64,000 nt of DNA from assembly GCF_037997115.1 (NCBI RefSeq), contig NZ_CP150484.1, positions 5,310,400 through 5,374,399 of the forward strand, read 5' to 3'. This DNA comes from Amycolatopsis coloradensis (GTDB lineage Bacteria; Actinomycetota; Actinomycetes; Mycobacteriales; Pseudonocardiaceae). Of this stretch, positions 27,836-54,933 are shown piece after piece (position 1 is the stretch's first letter; each line of letters begins with the position of its first letter). Made by a program: the position numbers and the translations under genes. The notes under the pieces were generated by a model. That model was given only the letters and a program-made list of their open reading frames with translations, did no database searches and was not told where the DNA came from.

Positions 27836-29263
27836 TCAGTCTTGCGGCGCCATTGCCTCACACATCTGGCCGAGACTGGCACGAGCCCGTGCCGCCTCGA
27901 TCAGGGTGGGCATCACGTTGACGCCACTCGCCACCGCGTCTCGTATCGCCTTCAACTCGGCATCGCAGGCCCGACGCTCCACCCCTCGTTGAACCGACGG
28001 CAAGGGTTTATGGCGCTCCCGCTGGAGAACGACCTCTTCGGTCTCGGACCGAAGCTGGTCCTTGACCCCCACCCGGGGCCCTGGTTCACGTTGAGCCAGA
28101 TCCTCGATCTCGGACTCCAGCCACCCGCTCCGGATACTGCCGAGCATGCCGCCATGGTCCTCGATCCGGCGGAGCCAGTCCTCCACCTCGGACCTCATCT
28201 CCGCCGCGATCCGCTCGATCACCGCCGAACCACCTAGCGGATCGACGTACCGGGCGACGTCCGTCTCCTCCGCCATGATCTGGTGGGTTCGCAGCGCGAT
28301 ACGGGCACCCAACTCCCCCGGCGTCTGATAGGCCTCGTCGAAACTGCACACGTGCAGGGACTGCACCCCGCCCAGCACGGCCGCGAGCGCCTGGATCGTG
28401 GATCGGACCACATTGTTCAGCGGTTCTTGGTGTGCGAGCGCGGAACCGAAAGTGTTGACCTGTACCCGCATCTTCATCGCGCGTTCGTCTGTCGCTCCCC
28501 AGCGTTCCCGCAACCGCTGCGCGTAGAGCGACCGCACCACACGAAACTTCGCGGCCTCCGCCAGCAATTCCATGTGCGCACCGAAGATGAAGGTGAACCG
28601 TCGAGCCACCTCGTCCACCCCCAGACCGCGGTCGACCATGCCTTGGAGGTACACCTCCGCGTCCGCGATCCCACATGCCACCTCAAGCGCCCGGCTGGCC
28701 CCCGCCTCGCGCGCGTGTCCACCGGACAAAGACACCGGATTCACTGTCGGCAGGTGGCGAATACAGTGCTCCAGAACATCGAGCGAATAGCGCATGCTGG
28801 TGTCGATGTCGTAGATGTAGGCCTTGCGTGCCAGAAACTCCTTCGGCATCTCGTTCTGGAGCGTCCCGCGCAGCGAAGCCGGATCGACACCCGACTCCTC
28901 GGCCACCACCACCCACATGGCCAGCAGTATCGGTGCCGTGGCGTTGATGGTCATGGACACCGAGAGCCGGTCCAAGGGAATACCTTTGAACACCTCCGCG
29001 AGGTCGTCGACGGTGGCAATCGAAACACCCGTACGACCGACTTCGCCTTCTGCTCGGGGGTCGTCGGGGTCGAGGCCGAGTTGCGTCGGCAGGTCGAACG
29101 CCAGCGACAGGCCGGTCTCGCCAAGGCCCAGCAGATAGTGGAAACGTTCGTTCGTAGAGCCGGCAGTGCTCAAACCGGCGAGCTGGCGCATGGTCCAGAC
29201 TTTGGTGGTGTATCCGGTCGGGTGGATACCCGCGTCATAGGGGTACTCGCCGGGCTCTGCCAT
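27836..29263 (-). CDS. B12-dependent acyl-CoA mutase, large (substrate-binding) subunit, alkylmalonyl-CoA type
   Basis: A protein of 475 residues, the TIM-barrel half of the methylmalonyl/ethylmalonyl-CoA mutase family (YDAGIHPTGY...WTMRQLAG; GLSLAFDLPTQLGLD; LAAVLGGVQSLH). The usual fused B12-binding C-terminus is absent; a separate subunit lies at 54493-54933. Where family members have SGYH at the thioester carbonyl contact, this protein has SGGH (Gly182, His183). Other pocket segments also differ (RVQVNTFG, LHVCSFDEA), suggesting a bulkier substrate. With the carboxylase/reductase 11 nt upstream it would turn an alkylmalonyl-CoA into a 2-alkylsuccinyl-CoA, as described for actinonin/matlystatin warheads. 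The substrate is inferred. Confidence 0.88.
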   Translation of the reverse strand: MAEPGEYPYDAGIHPTGYTTKVWTMRQLAGLSTAGSTNERFHYLLGLGETGLSLAFDLPTQLGLDPDDPRAEGEVGRTGVSIATVDDLAEVFKGIPLDRLSVSMTINATAPILLAMWVVVAEESGVDPASLRGTLQNEMPKEFLARKAYIYDIDTSMRYSLDVLEHCIRHLPTVNPVSLSGGHAREAGASRALEVACGIADAEVYLQGMVDRGLGVDEVARRFTFIFGAHMELLAEAAKFRVVRSLYAQRLRERWGATDERAMKMRVQVNTFGSALAHQEPLNNVVRSTIQALAAVLGGVQSLHVCSFDEAYQTPGELGARIALRTHQIMAEETDVARYVDPLGGSAVIERIAAEMRSEVEDWLRRIEDHGGMLGSIRSGWLESEIEDLAQREPGPRVGVKDQLRSETEEVVLQRERHKPLPSVQRGVERRACDAELKAIRDAVASGVNVMPTLIEAARARASLGQMCEAMAPQD

Positions 29264-29274
29264 TCATGCCCCCT

Positions 29275-30594
29275 TCAGGCCATCAACGGCGCGATGTCCG
29301 CACCGAATTTTTCGCGCATCACCGGATCGGTCACGCCGAGTCCTTCTTCGGGAGCCAGCGCGAGCACACCGACCTTCCCGAGATGAAGGTTCTCTTGCAC
29401 CAGCCGTGCTGCTTCGGCGGCTTCGGCCAAGGGATAGACGACCGAAAGGGCTGATTTGACGCGTCCGAGGGTGATGAGCCGGTTGACCTCCCATTGCTCT
29501 TGGAGATTCGCCCCATGGCTGCCGATCACCCGCTTGAGGCGCATCCACAAATAGCGATTGTCGAACTCGTGCTGAAAACCGGTACTCGATCCGCAAGTCA
29601 CGATCGTCCCGCCACGCCCGGCGACGAAAACCGAAAGGCCGAACGTTTCGCGCCCCACATGCTCGAAGACGACGTGCGGATCGTCACCGACCGCTTTTCG
29701 GATTCTCTTGCCGAGTTGTTTTCCACCTGTCACCGGATCTTCGAGGTCGAGTTCGCGCCGGTTGATGACGTGCTCGCAGCCCATCAACCGAGCACTTTCC
29801 GCGCGCTCTTCCGAGCTGACCACACCGACCGCGATGCCACCACCGTTCCGGACGAACTGTGCCGCGTACACGCCGAGCCCGCCGGCCGCGCCCCAGATCA
29901 AGACGACATCGCCCTGCTTGATGCGCGCCCCGTGCTCACCGACCAGCATGCGATAAGCGGTACCCGCGCACAGCGGACTGGCGGCGGCCTCCTCCCAGGT
30001 CAGATGAGGGGGCTTCGCCAGCAGTTGACTCGCCCGGACCACCGCGTACTGCGCCAGACCGCCGAAATTCGTCTCGAAACCCCAAGCGCGTTGCTCGCCG
30101 CCGAGCATGCTGTCTCCGTGCGTCGATGGCTCCTCATGGTCGACATGCGCCGTCGCGACCACGACATGATCGCCGACGGTCCAGCGGCGAACGCCGGAGC
30201 CGGCACGCACCACGACGCCTGCCGCGTCCGAGCCCAGTACATGGAACCGCTGGTCGTGACGAGCCGCGTCACCGCCCTGCCGTCCGAAATACTTGAGGAA
30301 GGCGAATGTCGGGACGGGATCAAAGGTCGCCGACCACACGGTGTTGTAGTTGATACCGCTGGCCATGACCGCGATGAGGACCTCGTCCGCCGCCAACGCC
30401 GGCATCGGCACCGGACCGATTCTCAACGAGCGCCGGACATCCTTGTCCTCGACACCTTGGAACATACCGACGTCTTCGGTGCGTGTGTGGACCGCGACGA
30501 ATTCGTCAGGCACCGGTATGCGTTCCAAATCCTCCCTGGGCGCACCTTTGACTACAGCTTCAGCGAGAGCGTCCAAGATCCCATCCAATCTCAT
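29275..30594 (-). CDS. ccr: Crotonyl-CoA carboxylase/reductase-type enzyme, probably medium-chain
   Basis: A protein of 439 residues in the MDR superfamily, full length for CCR. NADPH site IWGAAGGLGVYAAQF. The residues that hold CO2 in CCRs are present: Asn82 in INYNTVW, Phe173-Glu174 in GFETNFGG and His360 in IGSH. CCRs reductively carboxylate 2-enoyl-CoAs to alkylmalonyl-CoAs. After IGSH, crotonyl-specific enzymes have Phe; here it is Gly361, the change I recall from octenoyl-CoA enzymes such as CinF, so a longer chain is likely. No polyketide synthase is present, so the product must go to the mutase next door. Overlaps the adenylation gene by 4 nt. Confidence 0.9.
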   Translation of the reverse strand: MRLDGILDALAEAVVKGAPREDLERIPVPDEFVAVHTRTEDVGMFQGVEDKDVRRSLRIGPVPMPALAADEVLIAVMASGINYNTVWSATFDPVPTFAFLKYFGRQGGDAARHDQRFHVLGSDAAGVVVRAGSGVRRWTVGDHVVVATAHVDHEEPSTHGDSMLGGEQRAWGFETNFGGLAQYAVVRASQLLAKPPHLTWEEAAASPLCAGTAYRMLVGEHGARIKQGDVVLIWGAAGGLGVYAAQFVRNGGGIAVGVVSSEERAESARLMGCEHVINRRELDLEDPVTGGKQLGKRIRKAVGDDPHVVFEHVGRETFGLSVFVAGRGGTIVTCGSSTGFQHEFDNRYLWMRLKRVIGSHGANLQEQWEVNRLITLGRVKSALSVVYPLAEAAEAARLVQENLHLGKVGVLALAPEEGLGVTDPVMREKFGADIAPLMA

Positions 30595-32168
30595 CGGTTT
30601 CGGATGTCTTCGACAATGAGCGCGGCGACCGCGTCGCGGTCTGTCTTCCCGCTCGGCGTACGAGGCAGATAGGGCAGAACAGTCAGCGACAAAGGCAGCG
30701 ATGCCTCGGGAAGCACTTCGCTCAGATAGGCGAAAATGGCGTGCCAGTCCGGTGGCGGACCTTCCTCCGACGCGGTGACGGCTGCCCGCAGGGTTCGCGT
30801 ACCGGTACTCGCCTCGACGACTACACAGGCCGCGGCCTCGACGCCGGGCCTGCTCAGCAGATGGACGTCGATCTCCGTCAGGTTCACGCGGTACCCGCGG
30901 ATCTTGACGTCGCTGTCCAGACGGGACATGAACTGCACGACACCGTCCTGGATGCGCACCAGGTCGCCTGTGCGGAAGACCCGCGTGTGGCCATGAGGCG
31001 TGGGGGCGACGGTGACGAAGCGTTCCGCGTTGAGTTCCGGCCGGTGTGTGTAGCCCAGGGAAACCGGTGATCCGGCTACGAGCAACTCACCGACGTCCGG
31101 CGATTCTTCGTCCTCCGGATCGATCAGCAGCTCACAGCCCGGCAAGGGAACACCGATCGGTGGCAGAGCAGGCCATTCGTCGGGATCGGCGGGCAGGATG
31201 TGCGACGACACCATCGCGGACTCGCTCTGGCCGTAATGGTTGACCAACCGGGCACCGGGCAGCCGTCGGAACATCGCACGGATCTGCTTGGTGGCCACCA
31301 GTTGCTCGCCCGCGGTATTGACTTCGATCAGCTGGATCCCGGCCAGATCAGGTGTCGCCTCCGCCACGATCGCCAGCATCTGCAGGGCCACGTAAGGCAG
31401 GAACATCCGCTCGACGCGGTGTTCCATCAGCCAAGCGAGCAGACCGACCGGGTCACGGCGCAGCCGTTCCGGCACGACGACCACCGTGCCGCCACCGCGA
31501 AGTGTGCCAAGTACCTCCTGGAAGTAGACATCGAAATTGAGCGGGGCGAACTGAGCGGTGCGCAGGTCCCGACGCGGTGAGTGCGAGGCCTGCCACTCCA
31601 CCATGTTGTCCAGGCAGCCATGCGGGATCGCGACACCCTTGGGCCAGCCGGTTGAGCCCGAGGTATAGATGATGTAGAAGGCGGTATCCGGGTCGCAGGT
31701 GGCGGGCGGCTGGAAGACGACCACTTCGTCGGCGACGGAGAGCGAGTCGAAAGCGGGGATCGGGAGCGGTACCGGCGAATCGCTCAAGGCCGGGTCCGGT
31801 CCACTGTGGAGCAGCACCTTGGCGCCGCTGTCCTGGAGCATGTACTTCAGCCGCAACTCCGGATAGGCGGGATCGAGAGGTACATAGACGGCTCCAAGCA
31901 GCCCCGTCGCCAGCATCGCCGCGATGGTGGGCGCACCACGCTCGCCCGTGACGGCGACAGGGTCTCCTGTGGCGACGCCTTGCTCGTCGAGCAGAGCGGC
32001 GAGGCTCTGGGCCCATCGCAGAAGTTCCGCGTAGGTGAACCGGTCCACGCCGTCGACGACCGCGATCGCTTGCGGCTGCCGGGCGGCTGTCCGCAGCAAC
32101 GCGGTGATGAGGCAGGTCGGATTCGAGTCGCCACCCCACAGGGAGACCGGGAGACCGGCGTCCCTCAT
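30591..32168 (-). CDS. Stand-alone NRPS adenylation domain
   Basis: A protein of 525 residues with core motifs A3 YTSGSTGWPKG, A4 FDVYFQE, A5 NHYGQSE, A8 RLDSDVKIRGYRVNLTEI and the catalytic Lys in PSGKTDRD. There is no carrier domain attached. My alignment by eye gives the selectivity residues D-V-Q-V-N-A-H-M-V-K, which I cannot match to a known amino acid; the FDVxFQE/NHYG variant differs from standard A domains. It probably loads an amino acid, perhaps piperazate since it is coupled to the KtzT-type gene by a 4-nt overlap, onto the free carrier at 52719-52976. The substrate is inference. Confidence 0.85.
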   Translation of the reverse strand: MRDAGLPVSLWGGDSNPTCLITALLRTAARQPQAIAVVDGVDRFTYAELLRWAQSLAALLDEQGVATGDPVAVTGERGAPTIAAMLATGLLGAVYVPLDPAYPELRLKYMLQDSGAKVLLHSGPDPALSDSPVPLPIPAFDSLSVADEVVVFQPPATCDPDTAFYIIYTSGSTGWPKGVAIPHGCLDNMVEWQASHSPRRDLRTAQFAPLNFDVYFQEVLGTLRGGGTVVVVPERLRRDPVGLLAWLMEHRVERMFLPYVALQMLAIVAEATPDLAGIQLIEVNTAGEQLVATKQIRAMFRRLPGARLVNHYGQSESAMVSSHILPADPDEWPALPPIGVPLPGCELLIDPEDEESPDVGELLVAGSPVSLGYTHRPELNAERFVTVAPTPHGHTRVFRTGDLVRIQDGVVQFMSRLDSDVKIRGYRVNLTEIDVHLLSRPGVEAAACVVVEASTGTRTLRAAVTASEEGPPPDWHAIFAYLSEVLPEASLPLSLTVLPYLPRTPSGKTDRDAVAALIVEDIRNR

Positions 32169-32824
32169 GCCCCCGCCTCCTGGCTCACCGCACAGGGTCC
32201 GTGCTCGCGCATCAGGCGCCCCAACTTCCGACGGTTTCCCTCACGGTCTTCGAAATGCCGGATCACCAGTTCCCGCATCTCGGCGGGCATCTCCTGGCTG
32301 AGCTTGAACATCGCGTCGACACCCTCGATCTCCAGGCGGAACGCCCCGACCCCCGGCAGAATCCGCCGGAAGTATTCCAGCGATGACGTCGGATCCCACT
32401 CTTCGCCTTGCGTGCTCTCCAGCTGTTTCACGGTCGCCAGGATGACTTCGAATGTCTCCTCGCGGTCCTGTACGAGACGGAGCCGGCCATGAAGGTGGAT
32501 GGAGACGAAATCCCAGGTGGGGGCCGCCGGGTCCAGGCCATACGTCGCCGGAGTCACGTAGGCGCCCGGCCCCTGGAACACCAGCAGGGCCCGCATCCCG
32601 TCGGAGAGGGATCGCCAATGGGGATTGGCCCGATTCAGGTGACCTATCACTTCCGAGCCGACCAGCGGCGCATCGTCCGGAATAGCGGGCGCGAGCAGAG
32701 CCGGGAGATGCGTGGAATAGGGAACGTCCGCCCCATTGGTGTTGAGCGTCGCCAGCGGATGGTCCCGCATGACGTCGCGCAGCCACGTCTCGTCGCGTAC
32801 TTGATAGAGCTCGGGAACGAACAC
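32165..32824 (-). CDS. ktzT: PaiB-family piperazate synthase (KtzT-like)
   Basis: A protein of 219 residues in the PaiB/FMN-binding split-barrel family, with the conserved STHLP (His39), a candidate heme ligand, and GPGAYVTPATYG. Family members are often named FMN-binding negative transcriptional regulators, but KtzT uses heme to close N5-hydroxy-ornithine into piperazic acid, forming an N-N bond. The adjacent upstream gene encodes the matching ornithine N-hydroxylase, which is the diagnostic pairing. The gene lies 12 nt after that hydroxylase and overlaps the adenylation gene by 4 nt. Confidence 0.85.
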   Translation of the reverse strand: MFVPELYQVRDETWLRDVMRDHPLATLNTNGADVPYSTHLPALLAPAIPDDAPLVGSEVIGHLNRANPHWRSLSDGMRALLVFQGPGAYVTPATYGLDPAAPTWDFVSIHLHGRLRLVQDREETFEVILATVKQLESTQGEEWDPTSSLEYFRRILPGVGAFRLEIEGVDAMFKLSQEMPAEMRELVIRHFEDREGNRRKLGRLMREHGPCAVSQEAGA

Positions 32825-32836
32825 CGGATCACTCCT

Positions 32837-34183
32837 TCAGTGTTCAGTCAGAGACACACTCGACGATCGATTACGGGGATGCCGGGCGGGTCTTCCGGAC
32901 GCCTCCAGCGCATCGGCGATCTCCCCCGCTCGTACCGCCACATTGGAAAGAAGGCTGGACGAGATGCCGTGACTGTGTTCGGTGGAACCTTGCAGGAAGA
33001 TGTCGACTTTCACGTCGTCCGTCGTCCGGACCCGGTAATCGCGCCCCACCTGGATGTTCCCGCGCTCGTCGCGCAGGCATCGCGTTCCGAGCTCGCCGAG
33101 CAATCGCAGCGGATCACCGGGGCGGTAGCCGGTCGCGTAGACGATAGCGTCGGCCCGGACCGCCGTGACATCGCCGGTCGGCAGGAACTCGAGCCGGACG
33201 TTCACGTCGTCGGTACCGACCTCTTGACCGCGCACCCGGGACACATTGTGGACGTGCAGACGCCGGACCCCGCTGAGGCTTTCCCGGTACACACGGTCAT
33301 ACAGGTCTCGTATGGTGTCGTCATCGACGACCGCGTAATTGGTGTTGGAATGGTAGTCGAGCAGCATCGCCTTCACGTCCGGCGGAGAAGTGAAATACCG
33401 GTCGACGGCGACCGGGTCGAAGACCTCGTTGGTGAACGAACTGTCGTCTGCGACGCTGAAGCCGTACCGTGCGAAAACCGCGTGCACCTCCGCCTGCGGG
33501 AAACGTTCGTGCAGATAGCCGACCACTTCCGCGGCGCTCTGCCCGGCGCCGACCACGACGAAACGGGCAGGTGTCCCTGTTGCCGCCTTCTCCGCCTGGT
33601 AGAGCAAGTCCGAGCTGTGCCATATCCGGTCCCCCGCCTCGATACCCGCGGGAAGGACCGGCTCGAGCCCGGACGCGACGGCGATGGCTCGCGTCCGCAC
33701 GGTCGACAGCGCACCTTGTCCGCGGACGACCACGTCGACGGCGGCCGTGGTGCCGCGAGCATCCGTGACCGGTCGTATTTCGACGACCTCACTGCCATAG
33801 TCGACATCGTCGGCGAGCTGATCGGCCGCCCAAGCCAGATAGTCGTGGAACTCGGTACGAAGTGGATAGAAGGACTTGCGGTTGAGAAACGTGGCGAAAC
33901 GGCCTTTGGCGTGCAAGTAGGACAAGAATCCGAACCGGCTCGTCGGATTGCGCGGCGTGACCAAGTCCTTGAGGAATGACACCTGCATCGTCGCGCCGTC
34001 GATCAGCATGCCGCGATGCCAGCCGAACTCTTGCTGCTTCTCGAAGAAGCGCGCTTTGAAGACGGCCGCGGCGGATTCGGCCGATGCCCGTTCCCTGAGG
34101 GCTATGGCGAGTGCCAGGTTCGCCGGACCGAAACCCACGCCCACGACGTCCGCCGTATCGTCCGCCTCTGACTCGTACGCCAT
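32837..34183 (-). CDS. ktzI: L-ornithine N5-monooxygenase (KtzI-like)
   Basis: A protein of 448 residues in the class B flavin N-hydroxylase family (SidA/PvdA/KtzI). FAD motif GVGFGPANLALAIAL; substrate-loop FLKDLVTPRNPTSRFGFLSYL; NADPH motif VVGAGQSAAEVVGYL; and the C-terminal IVYATGYR and HSHGISSSLLSNVAVR blocks. It would make N5-hydroxy-ornithine for the KtzT-like enzyme. No siderophore genes are nearby, so a hydroxamate siderophore role is unlikely. It is the first gene of the leftward operon that ends with the mutase. Confidence 0.9.
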   Translation of the reverse strand: MAYESEADDTADVVGVGFGPANLALAIALRERASAESAAAVFKARFFEKQQEFGWHRGMLIDGATMQVSFLKDLVTPRNPTSRFGFLSYLHAKGRFATFLNRKSFYPLRTEFHDYLAWAADQLADDVDYGSEVVEIRPVTDARGTTAAVDVVVRGQGALSTVRTRAIAVASGLEPVLPAGIEAGDRIWHSSDLLYQAEKAATGTPARFVVVGAGQSAAEVVGYLHERFPQAEVHAVFARYGFSVADDSSFTNEVFDPVAVDRYFTSPPDVKAMLLDYHSNTNYAVVDDDTIRDLYDRVYRESLSGVRRLHVHNVSRVRGQEVGTDDVNVRLEFLPTGDVTAVRADAIVYATGYRPGDPLRLLGELGTRCLRDERGNIQVGRDYRVRTTDDVKVDIFLQGSTEHSHGISSSLLSNVAVRAGEIADALEASGRPARHPRNRSSSVSLTEH

Positions 34184-34501
34184 CGGTGATCCCTCCGTCG
34201 TTTCGTCACGGCAGCAGCCGAACTACGCCAACCAGCCGGGTCTACCGGGACTGCGGCGAGGGCTGCCGGAGACGGTGGCAGAGACCGACGGCCTCGGGGC
34301 TACGGGATCGAAGCGTCTACAGGCGATGGCACATAGCATCTATTCCCCCATTGCGAATCAGCCGTTCCCGTGAAAGGAGGAGCGACCCATCAGGGTTCGT
34401 CCGTCTCCACGATGCCCCATACTGCCGTGCGAATACGTGGTGCGCAAACATTCCGATTGCGAAGGCCAGGGAGCGGGCACGGTGAATCCGGTGTCCGGTC
34501 C
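34184..34501. other. Non-coding gap with presumed operon promoter
   Basis: About 320 bases between the ornithine hydroxylase start and the end of the MFS gene. I see no convincing gene. It should hold the promoter of the leftward piperazate/alkylsuccinate operon and the end of the MFS transcript. No clear palindrome was found. Confidence 0.5.
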
Positions 34502-35752: not shown

Positions 35753-35843
35753 CCGGACCGGCACGGTATGACAATGTATCGGATGGCAGTCGTCGACGCG
35801 CAGCCTTCGACTCCTCGATCTCCGTTTCCGTGAAAGGCCGCTT

Positions 35844-47136: not shown

Positions 47137-48868
47137 CGAACCGGAACCCCCGATACCACGCGTTGTCGAACGCCGTGACCCGACGGCGATGAGCGGCCAT
47201 CGCCTGGTGGAGCGTCGTCAGCATCTGGCCGACCGCGACCGCCGCGCGCAGATCGACGAGTTCGAAGGGCGGCTCCTCGGCCCGCATGAGCCGCAGGTCG
47301 TACAGGCCGGGGCGGTAGGAGCCGTCGAAGTGAATTCCGATGGGTACACGGATCGCGTGACGAACGCCGAACATGACATGGCCGGTGTGATGCTGGTCCG
47401 ACCAAGTGGTGATGTCGGGCATCGAAGGCGCGAAGAACCAGTCGTCCCTGCCAGGGTGATGCCTGCCGAGCCCCATGGAGTCCGGAAGGTAGTGCCAGGT
47501 GTTGTAGCGCATCCTTGCGCTGTAGGAGGCCAGGGCTTTGATCAACGAGGCACGGTCATCGGCGAATCTCTCCCGGAACCGGTGGCTGGGCACGACGCAG
47601 CAGTAGTTCTCGTTCGTGGTCAGCCGCAGCACCCGCTCCGGTGAGTCGCTGCCGTCGGCCAGGTCGTCCAGACATCGAGGTCCGCGTGCCATGGTCACAT
47701 CCGAATCGGTCGCCTCGGCGACGGCGCCGAGCAATCCGTGGAGCAGTTGCTCGAAAGCCGAGCCGAAACGAGCGTCGCCTGCCGGTTCGGCCAGCGCTCG
47801 TGCCAGGTCGTCGGGGACGCGGAACGTACCGTCGGCCGTCTCGTCCAGGCTTGCCTCTTCGCGCAGGAACCCGACCACCTCGGCGGGAAGGTCGGCCGGG
47901 CCGACCCGAGGAACCAGCGGCCGCTCCTCCTTGTAGAGGTTGACGCCCTGGATGTACCGGTAGAACTGTTGACCGGAGCGGATCGATTCCGACCGCCGGG
48001 CCGCACACTGGACCGCCAGATCATCAAGCCTGCCCAGGATTCCGCCGGTCGGCATGGCCGCCGCGTTGTCGATTTCGAGGCCGCTGTAGCTGCACGTTTT
48101 CCGCCGAAGCCACGCCTCCAAAGCGGACGGTGTCAGCTGGCGGCTGTTGAACTCTTCCAGCCGAACCGCCGTACCGGACTTAAGAAGCGCGGCGGCGCAC
48201 GCGACGAAGACGGCGTCTTCGACCCGCCACTCCGCCACTCCCGTCCGGCTCAGTTCGGTCAACACCGAATCCGGCGCACCGACGGCCAGCGACTTCCCCG
48301 GCAGGTTGGAGTGGCTGCCCAAGTTCGAATAGGTCCGGTCGCCGACATAGATCCGCACCGGCGCGAGATGGACCAGCGCGTCGGAGACGGAGTTCAGCCG
48401 CTCGACGACCGCTTCGGGCGGCTCTTGTGCCAGCTCCGCAGCGAGATCGTCGAACTCGGATCGCTCGGCCCAGGCCGCTCCGCGCGCCAGGCGATCGGCA
48501 GTGGCGAGGGATTCAGGGGTAGGCCAGCAACCCTTGCCGATGCGGTATCCACCCTCGCCGGCGTCGGCATCACGTTGTCGGATCGCCAGCCTGCCTGTCG
48601 CGGTGAGCCAGAGCCACCAGCCGTCGTCGGTCCTGTCGTCGTCGGCCTCGGTCTCTCCATCACCTTCGAGCCGGATCCCCGAGCGGACCATCTCTTCCAG
48701 AAGACCCCGCTCCTGGCGACTGAGTGCGGCGATCCCCGTCTCCTCGTCGATGCGTCCATCCAGAGTGGCGGCGACGCGAGCCGCCTCCGACGCCGTCGAC
48801 TGCTTCCTCGCCAGCGCGGCGGCCTCTGCCACGATCGCGTCGAAACCGTTTGTCCTCAAGCCAGTCAC
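47129..48868 (-). CDS. Conserved protein of the hydrazine cassette, unknown fold
   Basis: A protein of 579 residues. GTG 48868 lies 6 nt after a G9 run that may act as ribosome-binding site. No catalytic motif I can name. Notable segments include YCCVVPSHRFRERF, HYLPDSMGLGRHHPGRDDWFFAPSMPD and SDQHHTGHVMFGVRHAIRVP, with clustered His/Asp that could bind metal. Its place between GNAT and amidase matches the conserved hypothetical gene of the fosfazinomycin/kinamycin cassettes (FzmP-type, from memory). It may be involved in making hydrazinosuccinate, but this is not shown. Confidence 0.7.
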   Translation of the reverse strand: MTGLRTNGFDAIVAEAAALARKQSTASEAARVAATLDGRIDEETGIAALSRQERGLLEEMVRSGIRLEGDGETEADDDRTDDGWWLWLTATGRLAIRQRDADAGEGGYRIGKGCWPTPESLATADRLARGAAWAERSEFDDLAAELAQEPPEAVVERLNSVSDALVHLAPVRIYVGDRTYSNLGSHSNLPGKSLAVGAPDSVLTELSRTGVAEWRVEDAVFVACAAALLKSGTAVRLEEFNSRQLTPSALEAWLRRKTCSYSGLEIDNAAAMPTGGILGRLDDLAVQCAARRSESIRSGQQFYRYIQGVNLYKEERPLVPRVGPADLPAEVVGFLREEASLDETADGTFRVPDDLARALAEPAGDARFGSAFEQLLHGLLGAVAEATDSDVTMARGPRCLDDLADGSDSPERVLRLTTNENYCCVVPSHRFRERFADDRASLIKALASYSARMRYNTWHYLPDSMGLGRHHPGRDDWFFAPSMPDITTWSDQHHTGHVMFGVRHAIRVPIGIHFDGSYRPGLYDLRLMRAEEPPFELVDLRAAVAVGQMLTTLHQAMAAHRRRVTAFDNAWYRGFRFDD

Positions 48869-48874
48869 CGTTCG

Positions 48875-48883
48875 CCCCCCCCC
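48875..48883. promoter_or_regulatory. G9 tract at the ribosome-binding site of the 579-residue gene
   Basis: Nine consecutive G on the minus strand lie 6 nt before the GTG start, within a GTTCG-G9-CGAAC palindrome. No other Shine-Dalgarno sequence is present. Length variation of the run could change translation. Confidence 0.4.
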
Positions 48884-48921
48884 GAACCGATCTCTTCCGA
48901 CTTTCGTGGATTCGTCCTGAC

Positions 48922-49326
48922 TCAGCCCAAAGCGTTCAGCACCCAGGCGGACTCGTGCCGGGTGAAGCCCACGTGGGGGTAGTAGTCGACCGCGGCGGGC
49001 GCGGACAGCAGGACGATCTTGGCTTGCGGCGCGAACTCCTGGGTGGCGCGGATCAGGCTCCGGCCCACTCCCTGGCGCTGGAACTCCACGTCGACCGCGA
49101 TATCCGACATGTAGGTGACGTACGCTCCGTCGGTCAACGATCGGGCGATGCCGATCATGCGGCCGTCCAGCCGCGCGGTCACGATCAGGTTCGCCTGGCG
49201 GACCATGGTGGTGAAACGGTCACGTTGGTCGGTCGGACGGCGTTCGGCGAGTGTGGAAGCGTGGTAGAGCGCCGCCACTTCCTCCACATCGAGATCCGCG
49301 CCGTCTTCGATTTCACATTTCCACAT
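48922..49326 (-). CDS. GNAT N-acetyltransferase of the hydrazine cassette
   Basis: A protein of 134 residues with the GNAT core: MSDIAVDVEFQRQGVGRSL (motif A, acetyl-CoA pyrophosphate loop QRQGVG) and YYPHVGF near the end. In the fosfazinomycin/kinamycin cassette the corresponding enzyme acetylates hydrazinosuccinate before the lyase step. Here it overlaps the lyase gene by 14 nt, the pairing expected. Confidence 0.85.
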   Translation of the reverse strand: MWKCEIEDGADLDVEEVAALYHASTLAERRPTDQRDRFTTMVRQANLIVTARLDGRMIGIARSLTDGAYVTYMSDIAVDVEFQRQGVGRSLIRATQEFAPQAKIVLLSAPAAVDYYPHVGFTRHESAWVLNALG

Positions 49327-50617
49327 GCGATGAGGTCTCCTTGATCAAGTCGTGCAGCCGTTCTTTGAGGTGGCTCCGATTGGCCAGATACCTTTCCGGC
49401 CCGACGTCCAAGGGTTGTGCGACACCCCGTTCGCGCAATGCCTGTGCGAAATCCGTGGTACCGGACCAGGCCGAGTCGGCGGCACTCTGGACTGTCCGGT
49501 AGGCCTGTTCGCGCTCCATACCGGAAGAGACCAGATCGAGGTAGCCCATCGAGCTGTAGATCAGGCCCCGCGTGGCTTCCATGTTCTCCAGCATGCGTTC
49601 CGAACGTACGGTCAGGCCCGCGATGACGTCGGCGGCCGAAGAGAAGAGGAAATGGGTGATCATCAGGCTGTCGGGAAGAATCACGCGTTCCGCCGCCTGG
49701 TGGGCCAGATCGCGCTCGTGCCACAGCGCGACGTTCTCGAAGGCCACACTCGCGTGGGACCGCAGCAGTCGCGCCAGACCGCACAACCGCTCACTGGTGT
49801 TCGGGTTCCGTTTGTGCGGCATCGCCGACGAGCCTTGGTACTCGGAGGTTCGGGGCTCTTCCACCTCGCGGACCTCGGTGCGCTGCAGATGTCTGAACTC
49901 CAGGGCGATCTGCTCGACCACGGCGCCGGCGACGGCCAGCGCCGCCAGCAGCTCGGCATGCCGGTCTCTAGCCACGACCTGCGATGGGATCGGCTCGAAG
50001 CCCAGCCCCAAGGACGCGCATACGTGCGTTTCCACGCCTGGATCGAGGAACGCGTACGTTCCGATCGCGCCGGAAATCGTACCGACCGCGACGGCGGTGC
50101 GAGCCACCCGGACACGCTCCAGGCTCCGGTGCACCGCGAAGGCGTGAACTCCGAGCTTCTGGCCGAAGGTGGTGGGTTCGGCGTGGACCCCGTGTGTGCG
50201 ACCCACGCACATCGTGTCCCAATGCTCCAGGGCACGGTCGACGAGCGTGGCGAGCAGGCGCGTCCCGGCGTCCAGGACGAGATCACAGGCGGCCTTCAGT
50301 GTAGCGCCCAGACCGGTATCGACTACGTCATAGCTCGTCAGGCCGTAGTGGACCCAACGGGCGGCTTCGGCGGGCATGGGTTCGGTGTACGCGGCGAGAA
50401 ATGCCAGGATTTCGTGATCGCGAGTCCGTTCCAGTTCGGCGACGCGGTCCGGGGTGGGCGGCGGTGCTTCGGCGATCAGGCGCAGTGTCGCGTCCGGGAA
50501 AGCCCCCTGCTCGGCCATCGCCTCGGCCACGAGGACTTCAATACGCGCCCACAGGCCATACTTGGCCTCGTCGGACCAGATGGCGGCCATCGCCGGCAAC
50601 ACGTAGCGGGGAATCAT
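49313..50617 (-). CDS. Adenylosuccinate-lyase-like enzyme of the hydrazine cassette
   Basis: A protein of 434 residues from ATG 50617. It has the fumarase/aspartase superfamily signature GSSAMPHKRNPNTSE, and TSYDVVDT and VGRTHGVHAEP in the other active-site blocks. It should eliminate fumarate from a C-N bond; in the fosfazinomycin route the homologue splits N-acetylhydrazinosuccinate to fumarate and acetylhydrazine. A housekeeping PurB role is unlikely, given its place in the operon. Confidence 0.87.
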   Translation of the reverse strand: MIPRYVLPAMAAIWSDEAKYGLWARIEVLVAEAMAEQGAFPDATLRLIAEAPPPTPDRVAELERTRDHEILAFLAAYTEPMPAEAARWVHYGLTSYDVVDTGLGATLKAACDLVLDAGTRLLATLVDRALEHWDTMCVGRTHGVHAEPTTFGQKLGVHAFAVHRSLERVRVARTAVAVGTISGAIGTYAFLDPGVETHVCASLGLGFEPIPSQVVARDRHAELLAALAVAGAVVEQIALEFRHLQRTEVREVEEPRTSEYQGSSAMPHKRNPNTSERLCGLARLLRSHASVAFENVALWHERDLAHQAAERVILPDSLMITHFLFSSAADVIAGLTVRSERMLENMEATRGLIYSSMGYLDLVSSGMEREQAYRTVQSAADSAWSGTTDFAQALRERGVAQPLDVGPERYLANRSHLKERLHDLIKETSSHVEM

Positions 50618-50637
50618 CCTCGTCCTTCGTCCAGGGC

Positions 50638-52701
50638 CTAGGGGATGTCTGCGGTCGACGGGCTCGTCGCATCGAGGCAGATCGACCGGACTCGCGCGAG
50701 GTCGACCCTCCCTGTCCGGTCCCTGGGCAGCCGTTCGGTCAACACCACTTCGGTGGGCCGGGGTGCTCCCGGCGGCCAAACTCGAAGGACTTTCCGGCGC
50801 CACGTCCTCTCCGAGGCGGGATCCGATTCGGCGGTGCCGTCCGGCACCAGCAGAATCCCGGGTGCCGGACGGCTCGCGTCGGCCCCGGGTACGACGGCCA
50901 CCTCACGCACACCCGGCAGCGCCGCGATCCGGCGCTCGGCCTCCGCGCCTTCGAGATGCCGTCCCCCGAAATCGGCGGCCTGCCCCGCCAAGCCGAGGTA
51001 GTGGAGACGTCCCTTCGGATCGATGCGCGCGCGGATCTCGGTTTCCAGGTCGGGTCCTCCATCCCGCGGACGGAGCACCAGCGTTCCCGGAACCCGCGCC
51101 GGCAGTTCCCGCCCGTCGTGCGCGACCACGATCGGTCGCCAGTTCCCGGTGTTGTGGGCCAAGATCAGAGCGCCGTCGGGGACGTCCGGAGCCGGTTCCC
51201 ACTCCCCCCACGCGATCGGGCCGGCTCGGTCGTCGTCGAGTACCAGCACGATCCGGCCACCCGAGTTCACGAAAGCCACCCGGTCCTCTGTGGGGAGGAA
51301 CCGGTCGACCGGGACGATCATGGTGCCGGCTTCGAACTTCGGCACGGGTGCCACGGGCAGCGGGCAGCCGGGACTGCCGGAACGCCGAGACAGTGGTTCG
51401 TCGGGATCCGCGAGCGCCCGCTCCAAGGTCTCGTGCCAGCCTGACACGAAGTCCTCGGCGGTCTCGGCATCGAAAACGGAGGTCGCGTAATCCAGGCGGC
51501 CGAATACGCCTTCCGGGGTCTTTCGTAGCTGAAGCGTGACTTGGAAGGACTGGGACGAGTTCGGCGCGAAGAAATCCCAATCCAGCACAAGCCCCGGAAC
51601 CTCGCCGAAGTCTGCTGCGACTCGCGGGTAGGAAACGCCGAACCGATCGAAGATGCTCGGCCCGATGTCGACGCCATAGCTCTGGCGGAGTTCGCGCATC
51701 AGAAGGTGGAACGGGACCCGCCGGAACCGGTCGATGTCGGCCAGGGCACGTCCGGCCGTGGTGACCAGGTCCCGAAGGCCGGCCCGCGGCGCATGCTCGA
51801 TCACGCAGGGAACCATGTTGACCTGCATGGCAATGCGTTCCCTGGTGGCGGCGGTACTCGTGTCCGCCGGGATGCACAACGCGAAGCGGTCGTTTCCGTA
51901 GCGACCGAGCTGGGCGGCGGTGACGGCGAGCAGACCGGAGAAGAAGCTCGTCCCGGCTTCGGTTGTGAGAGCGGCGAGCCGCCGCAACCTTTGCTCGGGG
52001 AGTTCGAATCTCGACGTCGCGGCCATACTCGACACAGGATCGACGCGACTCGGCGCGGGCAGTACCAGGCTGGGAAAGGTGCGCAGGTCGTGCCCCTGCC
52101 AATAGGTTGTCGCCGCCGCCAGCCCGGCTTTGTCCAAGTCGTCGGAGCCGGCCAGCGGAGCGACGGCTTCGACGGCCGCGGCCGGGCGAACCCCCGCTCG
52201 GATCTCTCGCAAGGCACTGACGAACTGGCGCGCGAACACGAATTTGGACCGGCCGTCGAACGCGATGTGATGAACCGCGATCACCAGCGTCCGCCGCTCA
52301 TCACCGTGGTCGAGCAGGAAGAAACGGATGGGAGCACGGGACGTCAAGTCCCATGTCAGCGGCCGCCGGGCGAGATACCAGGCGCGGGCCGTCTCGTTCT
52401 CGGCGCCCGGCGCGCACGGAACAATGGGGTATTCGATTTCGAATACCGTTTCGGCGTCGTTGATCCGAAACCAGTACCGGTTATCCTGGTCGACGATTGT
52501 TCCGCGCAATTCCGGATGGTTTCGGCAAACTTCGGCGCAGGCCCCAGCGACCGCGTCGGCCTCCACTGTCCCGCTCATCGTGACAACGAAGAATCCTGCG
52601 TTCACCTGTTCCGGATGCCGGAGCTGTTCCAGCCAAACCGGTTCCTGCGCCATCGTCAGTGGCACGGTCTCCCCGCATCCCCGCATCTGACTCTCTTCCA
52701 T
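50638..52701 (-). CDS. NRPS condensation domain with degenerate adenylation tail
   Basis: A protein of 687 residues. The first 440 or so are a condensation domain with intact HHIAFDG and MVPCVIEHAPRAG. The last 220 or so resemble only the C-terminal part of an adenylation domain (GRLHYLGLAGQAADFGGRHLE, then GVREVAVVP, ending LPRDRTGRVDLARV), with no ATP-binding core. The tail is probably structural or a docking platform. The C domain likely joins the alkylsuccinyl unit to the amino acid on the carrier encoded 17 nt upstream. The start is uncertain (ATG 52686 possible). Confidence 0.82.
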   Translation of the reverse strand: MEESQMRGCGETVPLTMAQEPVWLEQLRHPEQVNAGFFVVTMSGTVEADAVAGACAEVCRNHPELRGTIVDQDNRYWFRINDAETVFEIEYPIVPCAPGAENETARAWYLARRPLTWDLTSRAPIRFFLLDHGDERRTLVIAVHHIAFDGRSKFVFARQFVSALREIRAGVRPAAAVEAVAPLAGSDDLDKAGLAAATTYWQGHDLRTFPSLVLPAPSRVDPVSSMAATSRFELPEQRLRRLAALTTEAGTSFFSGLLAVTAAQLGRYGNDRFALCIPADTSTAATRERIAMQVNMVPCVIEHAPRAGLRDLVTTAGRALADIDRFRRVPFHLLMRELRQSYGVDIGPSIFDRFGVSYPRVAADFGEVPGLVLDWDFFAPNSSQSFQVTLQLRKTPEGVFGRLDYATSVFDAETAEDFVSGWHETLERALADPDEPLSRRSGSPGCPLPVAPVPKFEAGTMIVPVDRFLPTEDRVAFVNSGGRIVLVLDDDRAGPIAWGEWEPAPDVPDGALILAHNTGNWRPIVVAHDGRELPARVPGTLVLRPRDGGPDLETEIRARIDPKGRLHYLGLAGQAADFGGRHLEGAEAERRIAALPGVREVAVVPGADASRPAPGILLVPDGTAESDPASERTWRRKVLRVWPPGAPRPTEVVLTERLPRDRTGRVDLARVRSICLDATSPSTADIP

Positions 52702-52718
52702 CGCTCGACGAGGGACAG

Positions 52719-52976
52719 TCAGGCGCTCTGCTCCTGCGCGAGGTCCGTCACCGCTGCCGCGAAGTCGCCGAGCACCGGGTTTTCGAACAACAGCAGAAGT
52801 GGGACGTCCACTTCCAATTCAGAGCGGATGAGAACGACGATCCGGGTGCCGACCAAAGAGTCGACCCCGAGCTTGAGCAGGTTGGCCGTCTGCGCCACCG
52901 GCTGCTTGAGGACGTCGGAGACAACTCTGGACACCGTCTCGCCGACGGCAGTGAGAAGGGGACCGGATATCGACAA
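52719..52976 (-). CDS. Free-standing peptidyl carrier protein
   Basis: A protein of 85 residues from TTG 52976, chosen because AGGAGG lies 10 nt upstream. The phosphopantetheine site is Ser40 in KLGVDSLVGTRI, followed by the helix III segment LLLLFENPVLGDFA. It would be loaded by the stand-alone adenylation enzyme and serve the condensation protein downstream. It is the first gene of the long leftward operon. Confidence 0.9.
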   Translation of the reverse strand: MSISGPLLTAVGETVSRVVSDVLKQPVAQTANLLKLGVDSLVGTRIVVLIRSELEVDVPLLLLFENPVLGDFAAAVTDLAQEQSA

Positions 52977-53499
52977 GGAACGTAACCCTCCTGGTTGGGG
53001 ACTTATCGTTCGCGCTACCTGGTGATGACCAATGATCCCAGTCTTACAGACGCCACCCCGAGCTGTCCACGAAGAACTGAAGAAATGGTTTCGCGGCAAG
53101 GAGTCGACCCGCGTCGTAACGAAGCCGGGACACCTGGGACATAGGACGGATATGCCGATTACGCGTGTATCCTCCCCCGATCACTGGCCATCCCGAGGCG
53201 ACCGGCCGATGAGGGCGTAAAGATGAGACTTGCCGGGCATGTCACGAATTTCGTTGTCCAGCGGTGGTAAAAAAGCTATTCTCGCTCATTCGTGGAAGCT
53301 TTGCTTCCCATTTCGCACTATCGCTCGGCGGCGACACGGGATGAGCTGGACGAAATGAAGTGTGCGCCGATGGAACCAGTCCGGGCCCGCTGAAAGGAGT
53401 AATCACAACTCCTCAGCGGCCCCGGACGATACTCGAGGGCAGGAACGGGGTCGCCGGCACGGTCCGGACAGCCGTGAGCAGATCCCGGAGGCGCCGCGG
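52977..53499. other. Non-coding region: operon promoter and deformylase terminator
   Basis: About 520 bases with no convincing gene. The part near 52980-53280 should carry the promoter of the carrier/NRPS operon. At 53379-53427 an imperfect hairpin (arms gtccggg...ggagt and actcc...cccggac, loop about 7 nt) follows the deformylase gene and probably terminates it. Confidence 0.55.
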
Positions 53500-54171
53500 C
53501 TACTTCCCCTTCTCGGTGGCACCGATCTCTCGTGCGCGTTCCACTCGCTGCGCGAACACGTCTTCCATGACGTCGGCCATCTCCTGGAGCACCGACCGGC
53601 GCCGTCGCTTGGCGAGCCGGTCGATGTAGAGGAGACCGTCGAGGTGATCGGTCTCGTGCAGAAGACAACGGGCGAAATATCCGGTGCCCTCGATCACCAG
53701 CTCGTTCCCGTCCTTGTCCTGGCCGCGCACCACCGCTTTTTCCTCGCGGTGCAAACCCGCGGTGGGGCCTGGTACCGAAAGGCAGCCCTCATGGGCGTCT
53801 AGCAGACGTCGCTCACGTGGACCGAGTGGATCGACCGTGGGATTGAGGATATGGCCGACATGGCGCACGCCGTCGTCATCGAAGCAGTCGTAGACGAACA
53901 GGCGCAGATCGACGCCGACTTGGTTTGCGGCGAGGCCGCAGCCCGCGGCCACGTACATGGTGACGAACATGTCGTCGATCAACCGGGACAGTTCCGGAGT
54001 ACCGAACTCCGTCCGCGCGGGGGCGCAAGGCCGGTGAAGGATCTCCTCCCCCACGACCGTGACCCGCAGGACCTGGCCACGCGCGGCCTCGGGCGCACGG
54101 GCAGGGTAGTCGCCGTCCACAGGCACACCCTGGACTCGGGTGCGGCGGTCAGTGACCGGGATAGTTGCCAT
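53500..54171 (-). CDS. def: Peptide deformylase, probable self-resistance copy
   Basis: A protein of 223 residues with all three deformylase motifs: GCGLAANQ (77-84), EGCLS (128-132, metal Cys130) and HETDH (172-176). The enzyme removes the N-formyl group from nascent proteins using Fe2+ or Zn2+ and is the target of hydroxamates such as actinonin. A lone def next to a cluster with alkylsuccinate-type genes points to target duplication for resistance. An alternative is deformylation of a biosynthetic intermediate. GGAGGG lies 11 nt before the ATG. It has its own transcript, divergent from the B12-subunit gene. Confidence 0.9.
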   Translation of the reverse strand: MATIPVTDRRTRVQGVPVDGDYPARAPEAARGQVLRVTVVGEEILHRPCAPARTEFGTPELSRLIDDMFVTMYVAAGCGLAANQVGVDLRLFVYDCFDDDGVRHVGHILNPTVDPLGPRERRLLDAHEGCLSVPGPTAGLHREEKAVVRGQDKDGNELVIEGTGYFARCLLHETDHLDGLLYIDRLAKRRRRSVLQEMADVMEDVFAQRVERAREIGATEKGK

Positions 54172-54492
54172 CGTCGTGCGATCCCTCCGAAATTCGCCGT
54201 CCCGTGACCAGGAAAGCCTGTTGGATTTGGTTCAATGGGCTCACTTTACCTTGGCGAAATGGCCCGTCCCGCAACGACACAGAGCCATCCGTGCGACAAA
54301 GCGAGTTCCCGTTTCCGCGGAGAATCGGACCGAAGCTGGCAGATGGAGCCGTCGCCGAAGTATCGTGACACCACGCGAGGCGGAGGGTTGCCTGGACCTC
54401 ACCCGCACGGCCGGAGGTGGTGAGAATTCGGGCGCCCGCATCGATTCACGATCCCGGAAGTGCAGACCCCGAGCAACCCTTCGAGGAGGAGC
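54172..54492. promoter_or_regulatory. Divergent intergenic region between def and the B12-subunit gene
   Basis: About 320 bases with no credible gene. It must hold promoters for the leftward deformylase and the rightward mutase small subunit. GAGGAGG lies just before the latter start. No clear operator repeat was found. Confidence 0.5.
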
Positions 54493-54933
54493 ATGTACAC
54501 CGACGCGCAGACGCCGGGACGTCCACTGCCGAGTCCGATCCGGGTCGTGGTCGCCAAGCCCGGTCTTGATGGCCACGATCGTGGCGCCAAGATCGTGGCG
54601 CGCGCTCTACGCGACGCGGGCATGGAAGTTGTTTACACGGGGTTGCGGCAGTCTCCGGAACAGATCGTGCGTGTCGCCGTGCAGGAAGACGCCGACGCCA
54701 TCGGCCTGTCCGTGCTGTCGGGAACGCACCTTTCGTTGTTCCGGCGCATTCTCGACCTGCTGGCCGAACAGGACGCGACCGACATCGTCGTCTTCGGCGG
54801 TGGCATCATTCCCGCCGAAGACATCGAAGAGCTGGCCGCGATGGGGGTCGCGCAGATCTTCACCCCCGGCGCCGCGACGACCGAAATCGTCGACTGGGTC
54901 CGGGACACCCTGGCCCCGGCCTCGATGGCATGA
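54493..54933 (+). CDS. B12-binding small subunit of acyl-CoA mutase
   Basis: A protein of 146 residues with the cobalamin-binding signature DxHxxG (Asp26-His28-Gly31 in GLDGHDRG), then GLSVLSGTH and [10 protein letters not shown], the usual order in mutase B12 domains. It completes the large subunit coded 25 kb away at 27836-29263. No other mutase is visible in the window, so the two probably form the functional enzyme. ATG 54493 has an ideal GAGGAGG leader. Confidence 0.92.

What the first reader, a model, noticed from the sequence alone, without database searches (positions are those of the whole stretch)
27836..54933. Cluster predicted to make a chelating pseudopeptide with alkylsuccinyl, piperazate and hydrazine-derived parts
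Seen: CCR-like enzyme and split acyl-CoA mutase, ornithine hydroxylase plus KtzT-type enzyme, the five-gene hydrazine cassette with an AsnB-like transferase, minimal NRPS parts (free A, free PCP, C, and C-A-PCP-TE), an exporter and a peptide deformylase. Known: actinonin and matlystatins carry an N-hydroxy alkylsuccinamic acid made by a modified ethylmalonyl-CoA route, and actinonin inhibits deformylase. Inference: this cluster makes a related short peptide with piperazate, in which the warhead carboxylate may become a hydrazide.
Basis: partly seen in the sequence, partly recalled or inferred. Interest (0 to 1): 0.92.

Follow-up and report, generated by a model that had tools for sequence, protein, structure and literature searches.

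The report
Antibiotic-type cluster with predicted hydrazide warhead
A mobile block of bacterial DNA carries genes for a small peptide related to the antibiotics actinonin and matlystatin, but with the gene that completes their metal-gripping hydroxamate replaced by a complete hydrazine-making set, so the product probably grips metal with a hydrazide, a warhead that none of the papers I found reports for this family.

Summary
Window 27,836-54,933 encodes a crotonyl-CoA carboxylase/reductase, a split acyl-CoA mutase, piperazate genes, an NRPS, the full five-gene hydrazine cassette, an AsnB-like enzyme and a peptide deformylase.

New evidence sharpens the reading:
- The mutase falls in a 100/100 clade with a matlystatin-type mutase and is 67% identical to the one on the lydiamycin plasmid.
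- The free A domain has the ten-letter code of the matlystatin-type piperazate A domain.
- The AsnB-like enzyme groups with MatC (97/96), not with FzmA-type enzymes.
- No AurF-type N-oxygenase, which completes the hydroxamate, is in the window; the genome's nearest match to MatA is 26% identical.
- One same-genus relative has an empty site: both operons lie on one ~32-kb insertion, and each lacks NRPS parts that the other has.

Best explanation: (alkylsuccinyl hydrazide)-piperazate-X, in which AsnB moves hydrazine from glutamylhydrazine onto the warhead carboxylate and the deformylase gives self-resistance. The acyl, piperazate and hydrazine parts are near-secure at gene level. Attachment at the warhead is inferred (about 0.6). 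The product is unproven; X, chain length, and the P450 and FemAB-like roles are open. New variant of a known kind.

The parts
25698..58106 (.). Insertion (genomic island) carrying the whole cluster
   Evidence: Relative G054 (same genus) matches the window up to 25697 and again from 58107, with about 67 bp between; one relative only
27836..29263 (-). Acyl-CoA mutase large subunit, hexylmalonyl-CoA-mutase type (MatB-like)
   Evidence: Pfam MM_CoA_mutase; clade with L067, L068 at 100/100; 67% to the mutase on the lydiamycin plasmid
29275..30594 (-). Crotonyl-CoA carboxylase/reductase (MatL-like)
   Evidence: NCBIfam TIGR01751 over cut-off; 71% to mat-type copy
30591..32168 (-). Free adenylation domain, piperazate type (MatJ-like)
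   Evidence: 61% to mat-type copy; ten-letter code identical to the mat-type and L072 copies
32165..32824 (-). KtzT-type piperazate synthase
   Evidence: FMN_bind_2; PDB 9ebk 'Piperazate synthase' E 4.1e-58
32837..34183 (-). KtzI-type ornithine N-hydroxylase
   Evidence: Lys_Orn_oxgnase E 4.7e-104; 53% to mat-type copy
34502..35779 (-). MFS exporter (start uncertain)
   Evidence: MFS_1
35877..37058 (+). FemAB-like/GNAT_6 transferase, role open
   Evidence: PF04339 and PF13480 over cut-off; relatives both beside and away from cassettes
37122..38324 (+). Cytochrome P450
   Evidence: Pfam p450; PDB P450 hits led by 6m4p and CYP105AS1
38317..38535 (+). Single-cluster ferredoxin, probably the P450 partner (start by eye)
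   Evidence: Fer4_13; overlaps the P450 stop
38519..42259 (-). NRPS C-A-PCP-TE, terminal module
   Evidence: Pfam; start overlaps AsnB stop; A code DVLVDGSVIK; HHxxxDG, LGGxS and GxSxG motifs present
42259..44112 (-). AsnB-like amidotransferase, MatC type, predicted to transfer hydrazine
   Evidence: Groups with MatC-type 97/96, far from FzmA-type; best PDB 7ylz hydroxyamidotransferase; N-terminal Cys and SGGLDSS motif kept
44155..45708 (-). FzmN/KinL-type glutamine synthetase homologue (glutamylacetylhydrazine formation)
   Evidence: Gln-synt_C; 61-63% to L018-L024
45718..47136 (-). FzmO/KinK-type amidase (deacetylation)
   Evidence: Amidase; 53-55% to L018-L024
47129..48868 (-). KinJ/FzmP-type heme enzyme (N-N bond formation)
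   Evidence: 44-47% to L018-L024; residues named for KinJ conserved by spacing
48922..49326 (-). FzmQ/KinN-type N-acetyltransferase
   Evidence: GNAT; 74-77% to L018-L024
49313..50617 (-). FzmR/KinM-type lyase
   Evidence: Lyase_1; 62-63% to L018-L024
50638..52701 (-). Condensation domain protein with a C-terminal extension, perhaps an A-domain relic
   Evidence: Condensation 12-439; weak AMP-binding_C 588-664, 23.6 bits under the 24.5 cut-off; 35% to mat-type C protein over 571 columns; HHxxxDG present
52719..52982 (-). Free peptidyl carrier protein
   Evidence: PP-binding E 2.4e-12; LGVDS motif, TTG start behind a GGAGG by eye
53500..54171 (-). Extra peptide deformylase, predicted self-resistance
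   Evidence: Pep_deformylase E 1.2e-41; 4 family members in genome; nearest other copy 51%; three active-site motifs present
54460..54933 (+). B12-binding small subunit of the mutase (MatQ-like)
   Evidence: B12-binding; 63% and 65% to mat-type and L072 copies
55020..56264 (+). Tyrosine recombinase near the island edge
   Evidence: Phage_integrase
56378..57586 (+). rve-type transposase
   Evidence: rve

Best explanation
The cluster makes a short metalloenzyme inhibitor of the actinonin/matlystatin/lydiamycin kind with a hydrazide in place of the hydroxamate. (1) CCR carboxylates an octenoyl-CoA-like enoyl-CoA, and the B12-dependent two-subunit mutase rearranges the alkylmalonyl-CoA to a 2-alkylsuccinyl-CoA (published model for act/mat; genes present; chain length not known). 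(2) KtzI and KtzT turn ornithine into piperazate, which the free A domain loads on the free PCP (genes and A code shown; activity inferred). (3) The KinJ-type heme enzyme joins nitrite to aspartate, giving hydrazinosuccinate; the GNAT acetylates it, the lyase releases acetylhydrazine, the GS homologue puts it on glutamate and the amidase deacetylates it to glutamylhydrazine (published reactions of the homologues). (4) The MatC-type AsnB, which in the mat model amidates the alkylsuccinyl carboxylate, here takes hydrazine from glutamylhydrazine and makes the warhead hydrazide, before or after peptide assembly (inferred; the key step). (5) The C protein joins the acyl part to piperazate; C-A-PCP-TE adds one residue X and releases the product (inferred). 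(6) The extra deformylase, perhaps not inhibited by the product, protects the producer, and the MFS protein exports the product (by analogy with LydA and exporters).
For: Mutase clade 100/100 with a matlystatin-type and a Streptomyces homologue, 64-67% identity, against 42-45% to 29 other mutases. Piperazate A code 10/10 identical to the mat-type one. AsnB: sister of the MatC-type enzyme at 97/96, 16 residues shared only with it, next best 7 among 23 rows; nearest solved structure is a hydroxyamidotransferase, 482 bits against 153 for E. coli AsnB. AurF-type N-oxygenase absent from the window, and no MatA orthologue in the genome. Complete cassette with the residues named for KinJ kept. Operon 2 runs PCP-C-lyase-GNAT-KinJ-amidase-GS-AsnB-NRPS with gaps of -14 to 53 bp, so cassette, AsnB and assembly line are probably one transcript. 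Operon 1 has the piperazate A but no PCP or C; operon 2 has a free PCP and a C protein without their own A, so the operons need each other. One insertion holds both. The genome also has a CreD/CreE-like pair as a possible nitrite source.
Against: No metabolite or enzyme data. Hydrazide formation on an acceptor was not reconstituted even for FzmA, and I found no precedent for a MatC-type enzyme using glutamylhydrazine. No MatE-like epimerase lies in the window (with a positive control; the rest of the genome was not searched for it except L111); none was found either in the 18 kb held of L072. None of the scanned cluster genes is a MeaB-type chaperone. The ferredoxin is single-cluster and sits beside the P450, unlike two-cluster KinI, though FzmP clusters also frequently lack one. 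FemAB-like and P450 genes are unexplained. The window AsnB has a long branch (1.17), so its placement is less sure than the support suggests; two other AsnBs of the same broad group, 42% identical, are encoded elsewhere in the genome (L089, L102).
Confidence: 0.6

Rival explanations
1. The warhead stays a free 2-alkylsuccinate, as in lydiamycin, and hydrazine is placed elsewhere, for instance on the C-terminal carboxylate after TE release, or used by the FemAB-like enzyme to build another N-N group.
For: Lydiamycin shows that the carboxylate form inhibits deformylase. The AsnB stop overlaps the NRPS start, which would also fit an acceptor at the C terminus. A FemAB-like gene is present.
Against: AsnB is sister to the MatC-type enzyme, whose proposed role is on the warhead. 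The lydiamycin cluster is reported to lack AsnB.
Confidence: 0.17
2. The hydrazide is only an intermediate: the FemAB-like transferase acylates its distal nitrogen, the TE closes a ring through it, or the P450 oxidises it, giving a diacylhydrazine, macrocycle or diazene.
For: FemAB/GNAT_6-like genes lie near 9 of the 10 cassettes in L018-L027 (not in the 16.9 kb held of L020) and near none of the 3 in L033-L035 (E 1e-8); P450 and ferredoxin are present.
Against: FemAB-like relatives of equal similarity occur in loci without a cassette, and the tree does not join the window gene to the cassette ones.
Confidence: 0.13
3. AsnB uses glutamine to make the amide as proposed for matlystatin, and an N-oxygenase elsewhere makes the hydroxamate; the cassette serves another product.
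For: Five AurF-family genes exist elsewhere in the genome.
Against: The only MatA match is 26% identical at 4.02 Mb. The cassette sits in one run of genes with the AsnB and NRPS on the same insertion.
Confidence: 0.06
4. Two unrelated clusters lie side by side by chance, or the cluster is decayed.
For: Two operons with a + strand gene block between them.
Against: Each operon lacks NRPS parts that the other has; the 21 translated proteins have no internal stop and the catalytic motifs looked at are kept; both lie on one insertion absent from a relative.
Confidence: 0.04

Closest known systems
Matlystatin cluster (mat; PMC5719088)
   Different: No AurF-type MatA, no PKS among the scanned genes, no MatE-like epimerase in the window; hydrazine cassette, deformylase, P450 and terminal C-A-PCP-TE instead
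Lydiamycin cluster (lyd; PMC12130866)
   Same: Mutase 67% identical; piperazate genes, NRPS and a cluster deformylase (read in the paper)
   Different: lyd is reported to lack AsnB and N-oxygenase; it makes a macrocyclic pentapeptide with a carboxylate warhead
Actinonin cluster (act; PMC5719088)
   Same: CCR, mutase, AsnB-like ActJ and short NRPS, as described in the paper
   Different: Valine/prolinol peptide, reductase release, AurF-type ActI; no deformylase gene. Its sequence was not compared here
Fosfazinomycin and kinamycin hydrazino cassette (PMC6133997, PMC12154649)
   Same: All five genes, in the order seen in L018-L024
   Different: No phosphonate or type II polyketide genes among the scanned ones; the AsnB is of the MatC type, 30% identical to FzmA-type enzymes
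TsnB9-type hydroxyamidotransferase (PDB 7ylz; that 7ylz is TsnB9 is recalled)
   Same: Same broad AsnB group; TsnB9 moves hydroxylamine from glutamate to a carboxylate (read)
   Different: 39.5% identity; donor here predicted to be glutamylhydrazine

Membership tests
Alkylsuccinyl (HPS-type) pathway | Mutase in the clade tied to these clusters | tested here: met
   Clade of 3 of 32 rows at 100/100 with L067 (mat-type) and L068; 67% to lydiamycin-plasmid mutase
Alkylsuccinyl (HPS-type) pathway | CCR and B12-binding small subunit in the cluster | tested here: met
   71% and 63% to mat-type copies
Alkylsuccinyl (HPS-type) pathway | Alkylmalonyl-CoA epimerase in the cluster | tested here: not met
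   MatE-like query (named by position and eye) gives no hit in the whole window, positive control met; rest of the genome not searched except L111
Alkylsuccinyl (HPS-type) pathway | Product with a 2-alkylsuccinyl unit | not testable with these tools
   Needs metabolite data
Hydroxamate subgroup (actinonin, matlystatin) | AsnB-like enzyme of MatC/ActJ type | tested here: met
   MatC-type sister 97/96; ActJ not available for comparison
Hydroxamate subgroup (actinonin, matlystatin) | AurF-type N-oxygenase in the cluster | tested here: not met
   Five PF11583 genes in the genome, none in the window; only MatA match 26% at 4.02 Mb
Piperazate pathway | KtzI plus KtzT pair and a piperazate A domain | tested here: met
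Hydrazino cassette (fzm/kin) | GS, amidase, KinJ/FzmP, acetyltransferase and lyase together | tested here: met
   All five, same order as in 7 of 7 loci L018-L024
Hydrazino cassette (fzm/kin) | KinJ heme and substrate residues | tested here: met
   C468, R497, M498, N501, H504, H541, R551, R570 map by spacing alone to C423, R452, M453, N456, H459, H497, R507, R526, invariant in 20 rows; the KinJ sequence itself was not aligned
Hydrazino cassette (fzm/kin) | Dedicated two-cluster ferredoxin (KinI) | tested here: not met
   Only a single-cluster ferredoxin beside the P450; FzmP clusters also frequently lack one
Fosfazinomycin | FzmA-type AsnB | tested here: not met
   30% identity to two FzmA-type enzymes, distant in tree
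Deformylase-based self-immunity (LydA) | Cluster deformylase that resists the product | not testable with these tools
   Gene present and active-site motifs kept; resistance needs an assay

The most novel reading that the evidence does not exclude
A natural metalloenzyme inhibitor whose metal-binding group is an acyl hydrazide, made by replacing the N-oxygenase step of the matlystatin route with an imported hydrazine-donor pathway and a re-tuned AsnB. The same molecule would then hold two N-N bonds made by two different heme enzymes, KtzT type (piperazate ring) and KinJ type (warhead).
Probability: 0.57. Interest if true: 0.85.

Novelty: new variant of a known kind. Interest (0 to 1): 0.72.

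Why it matters
Hydroxamate inhibitors of peptide deformylase such as actinonin may have failed in trials through toxicity of the hydroxamate (discussed in PMC12130866, passage read). A natural hydrazide on the same scaffold would be a further metal-binding group beside hydroxamate and carboxylate, and would show nature swapping one by replacing a biosynthetic module. It would also show a glutamylhydrazine donor feeding an NRPS product, outside the fosfazinomycin and (diazo)benzofluorene groups beyond which PMC12154649 finds the cassette not conserved, and would give a concrete case for testing how AsnB-type enzymes choose between ammonia, hydroxylamine and hydrazine.

Tried and rejected
The FemAB-like gene 35877-37058 first looked like a cassette partner, because relatives lie near 9 of the 10 cassettes in L018-L027. 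Rejected as evidence: 17 of 30 genomes searched have a match at E 1e-6; four loci with relatives of like similarity (L136-L139) hold no cassette gene; and the tree does not group the window gene with cassette copies.

AsnB as an FzmA orthologue: rejected. The two FzmA-type rows (L100, L101) were named from their place a few kb beyond the flanks of L021 and L024.

Search for the same combination elsewhere. At E <= 1e-145 the mutase was found in 1 of 390 family genomes (own only), 1 of 341 genomes of another family and 1 of 392 of a genus. The two other loci have no cassette gene in the stretches held (60 kb and 18 kb). KinJ relatives were found in 13 of 297 family genomes including the own one and in 7 loci of the genome-contig scan. 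None of the 19 loci examined (L018-L036, 16.9-21.8 kb each) has a mutase, CCR, KtzI, KtzT, free A, B12, AsnB or deformylase hit at E 1e-5, with KinJ as positive control in 19 of 19. The contig scan used patterns from one protein and finds close relatives only.

Residue X of the terminal A domain could not be assigned from its code. Exact repeats of 14 bp or more between the island-end zones searched: none. Literature: the listings show no title or abstract opening that describes a hydrazide of this family; most listed papers were not opened. The main text of that paper has no word beginning 'hydrazi'.

Full report
What is there. The region was annotated by a GC-position gene call and Pfam/NCBIfam scans. 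Operon 1 (minus strand, 34.2 to 27.8 kb) reads KtzI - KtzT - free A - CCR - mutase, with gaps of -4 to 12 bp. Operon 2 (minus strand, 53.0 to 38.5 kb) reads PCP - C - lyase - GNAT - KinJ type - amidase - GS type - AsnB - C-A-PCP-TE, with gaps of -14 to 53 bp; the AsnB stop overlaps the NRPS start. That these runs are operons is inferred from spacing. A deformylase and the mutase B12 subunit lie at the right end. An exporter, a FemAB-like gene, a P450 and a ferredoxin lie between the operons. The 21 translated proteins have no internal stop.

One insertion. Relative G054 of the same genus aligns at 89-95% to the window left of 25,697 and right of 58,107, with about 67 bp between the two points. 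So both operons, the recombinase at 55,020 and the transposase at 56,378 came, or were lost, as one block of about 32.4 kb. This rests on one relative; in the 33 kb fetched of a second one, G107, only the right flank matched. The operons also need each other: operon 1 has the piperazate A domain but no PCP or C, while operon 2 has a free PCP and a C protein without an intact A of their own.

The acyl part. Ford et al. (PMC12130866; outline with abstract, passages and section 8 read) used the mutase as marker for the 2-pentylsuccinyl chemophore. The window mutase is 67% identical to the one on the lydiamycin plasmid and forms a 100/100 clade with a mat-type and a Streptomyces copy apart from 29 other mutases. 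In a search of 394 genomes of the class, the listed matches other than the window's own were at most 48% identical; the list was cut. CCR and B12 subunit follow (71%, 63%).

The matlystatin yardstick. G976 is unnamed, but its gene order fits the published mat letters: AurF-like A, mutase B, AsnB C, KtzI D, epimerase-like E, KtzT F, A domain J, C protein, CCR L, B12 subunit Q (PMC5719088, sections 6, 12 and 13 read). MatA was named from its position and a 26% match to an AurF-family protein, MatE by position and eye. I treat the cluster as matlystatin or a very close one. Its other A domain gives the code DAWFLGNIIK, leucine-like by recall, as published for MatO; this serves as a control for the code extraction.

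Piperazate. KtzI and KtzT homologues are clear; the KtzT-like protein matches the PDB entry named piperazate synthase at 4.1e-58. The free A has all ten code letters of the mat-type and L072 copies; Ford et al. report the same code for the lydiamycin and matlystatin piperazate domains.

Hydrazine. The five genes match those described by Wang et al. (PMC6133997, passages read): acetylation of hydrazinosuccinate, release of acetylhydrazine, loading on glutamate, deacetylation. The 579-aa protein is a relative of proteins that hold the KinJ/FzmP place in other cassettes; Kenney et al. (PMC12154649, a preprint; outline with abstract, passages and sections 9 and 10 read) show that KinJ joins nitrite to aspartate with a ferredoxin. 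The residues they name map by spacing to window residues that are invariant in 20 aligned rows; KinJ itself was not in the alignment. No CreD/CreE pair was seen among the scanned genes of the window, but the genome has one at 6.56 Mb (CreE-like 52-55%, CreD-like 54%). Kenney et al. state that the cassette beyond KinI/KinJ is not conserved outside fosfazinomycin and benzofluorene clusters; this locus, and perhaps L025-L027, would widen that. L018-L024 are called fosfazinomycin-like from gene content of L018 (methyltransferase, TauD, biotin-carboxylase-like) and conserved neighbours; a phosphonate gene was not looked for.

Where the hydrazine goes. For mat and act the paper proposes that the carboxylate is amidated by AsnB and oxidised by an AurF-type enzyme, or that the pair acts as in trichostatin, where hydroxylamine is moved from glutamate. 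The window AsnB is sister to the MatC-type enzyme (97/96), with 16 residues found only in these two against at most 7 with any other of 23 rows. It is 30% identical to two FzmA-type enzymes near Streptomyces cassettes. Its nearest solved relative is a hydroxyamidotransferase. No AurF-type gene is in the window, and the only MatA match in the genome is 26% identical. So a MatC-type acceptor side has been combined with a hydrazine donor pathway. The long branch of the window AsnB fits a changed function but also weakens its placement. Donor specificity is inferred, not shown.

Self-resistance. The genome has four deformylase-family genes; the cluster copy is 51%, 37% and 30% identical over the aligned stretches to the other three and keeps the three active-site motifs. 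In lydiamycin a cluster deformylase gives immunity; act and mat have none. The same role is likely here by analogy.

Open points. The terminal A code (DVLVDGSVIK) was not assigned. The FemAB-like gene and the P450 could tailor the product, including the hydrazide itself. No epimerase homologue was found in the window, nor in the 18 kb held of L072. Mass values in the next steps were computed by hand; the amide value agrees with the m/z 170.12 fragment reported in PMC5719088.

Confidence. Alkylsuccinyl plus piperazate about 0.9; hydrazine made about 0.9; hydrazide on the warhead about 0.6, or 0.7 counting products in which it is further modified.

Noticed in passing
L111 (own genome 6,556,000-6,575,900), 6819-12597: A CreE-like (52%) and a CreD-like (54%) gene lie elsewhere in the genome, a possible nitrite source for the KinJ-type enzyme or part of another N-N cluster.
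   Followed up: partly
L025, L026, L027: Full hydrazine cassettes in three genomes of the same family, with (scanned in L025, by similarity in the others) an MFS gene, a methyltransferase, a GNAT_6 protein and a 470-aa protein without Pfam domain; possibly a further product type.
   Followed up: partly
L033, L034, L035: Cassettes of more distant sequence; L033 (and L034 by similarity) lies beside aromatic-ring hydroxylases, and L033 beside a ketosynthase, so kinamycin/fluostatin-like. L035 was not typed.
   Followed up: partly
L028, L031: KinJ relatives without the rest of the cassette, beside ATP-grasp ligase genes (scanned in L028, by similarity in L031).
   Followed up: no
50638-52701: Behind the C domain lies a stretch with a weak AMP-binding_C match (588-664, just under the cut-off), as if a C-A module had lost its A core and now depends on the free A in trans.
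   Followed up: partly
L072 (18,337-base contig): A Streptomyces contig with mutase, CCR, B12, KtzI, KtzT, piperazate A and C but no AsnB hit in the 18 kb held; it looks lydiamycin-like.
   Followed up: partly
25539-26084: A MarR-like ORF fragment (name by eye, not scanned) spans the left edge of the insertion; the part inside the insertion is absent from the empty site in G054.
   Followed up: no
window 44155-45708: The GS-like protein matches PDB 8wwu (glutamine synthetase) far better (406 bits) than the other listed glutamine synthetases (138 bits or less); its function was not looked up.
   Followed up: no
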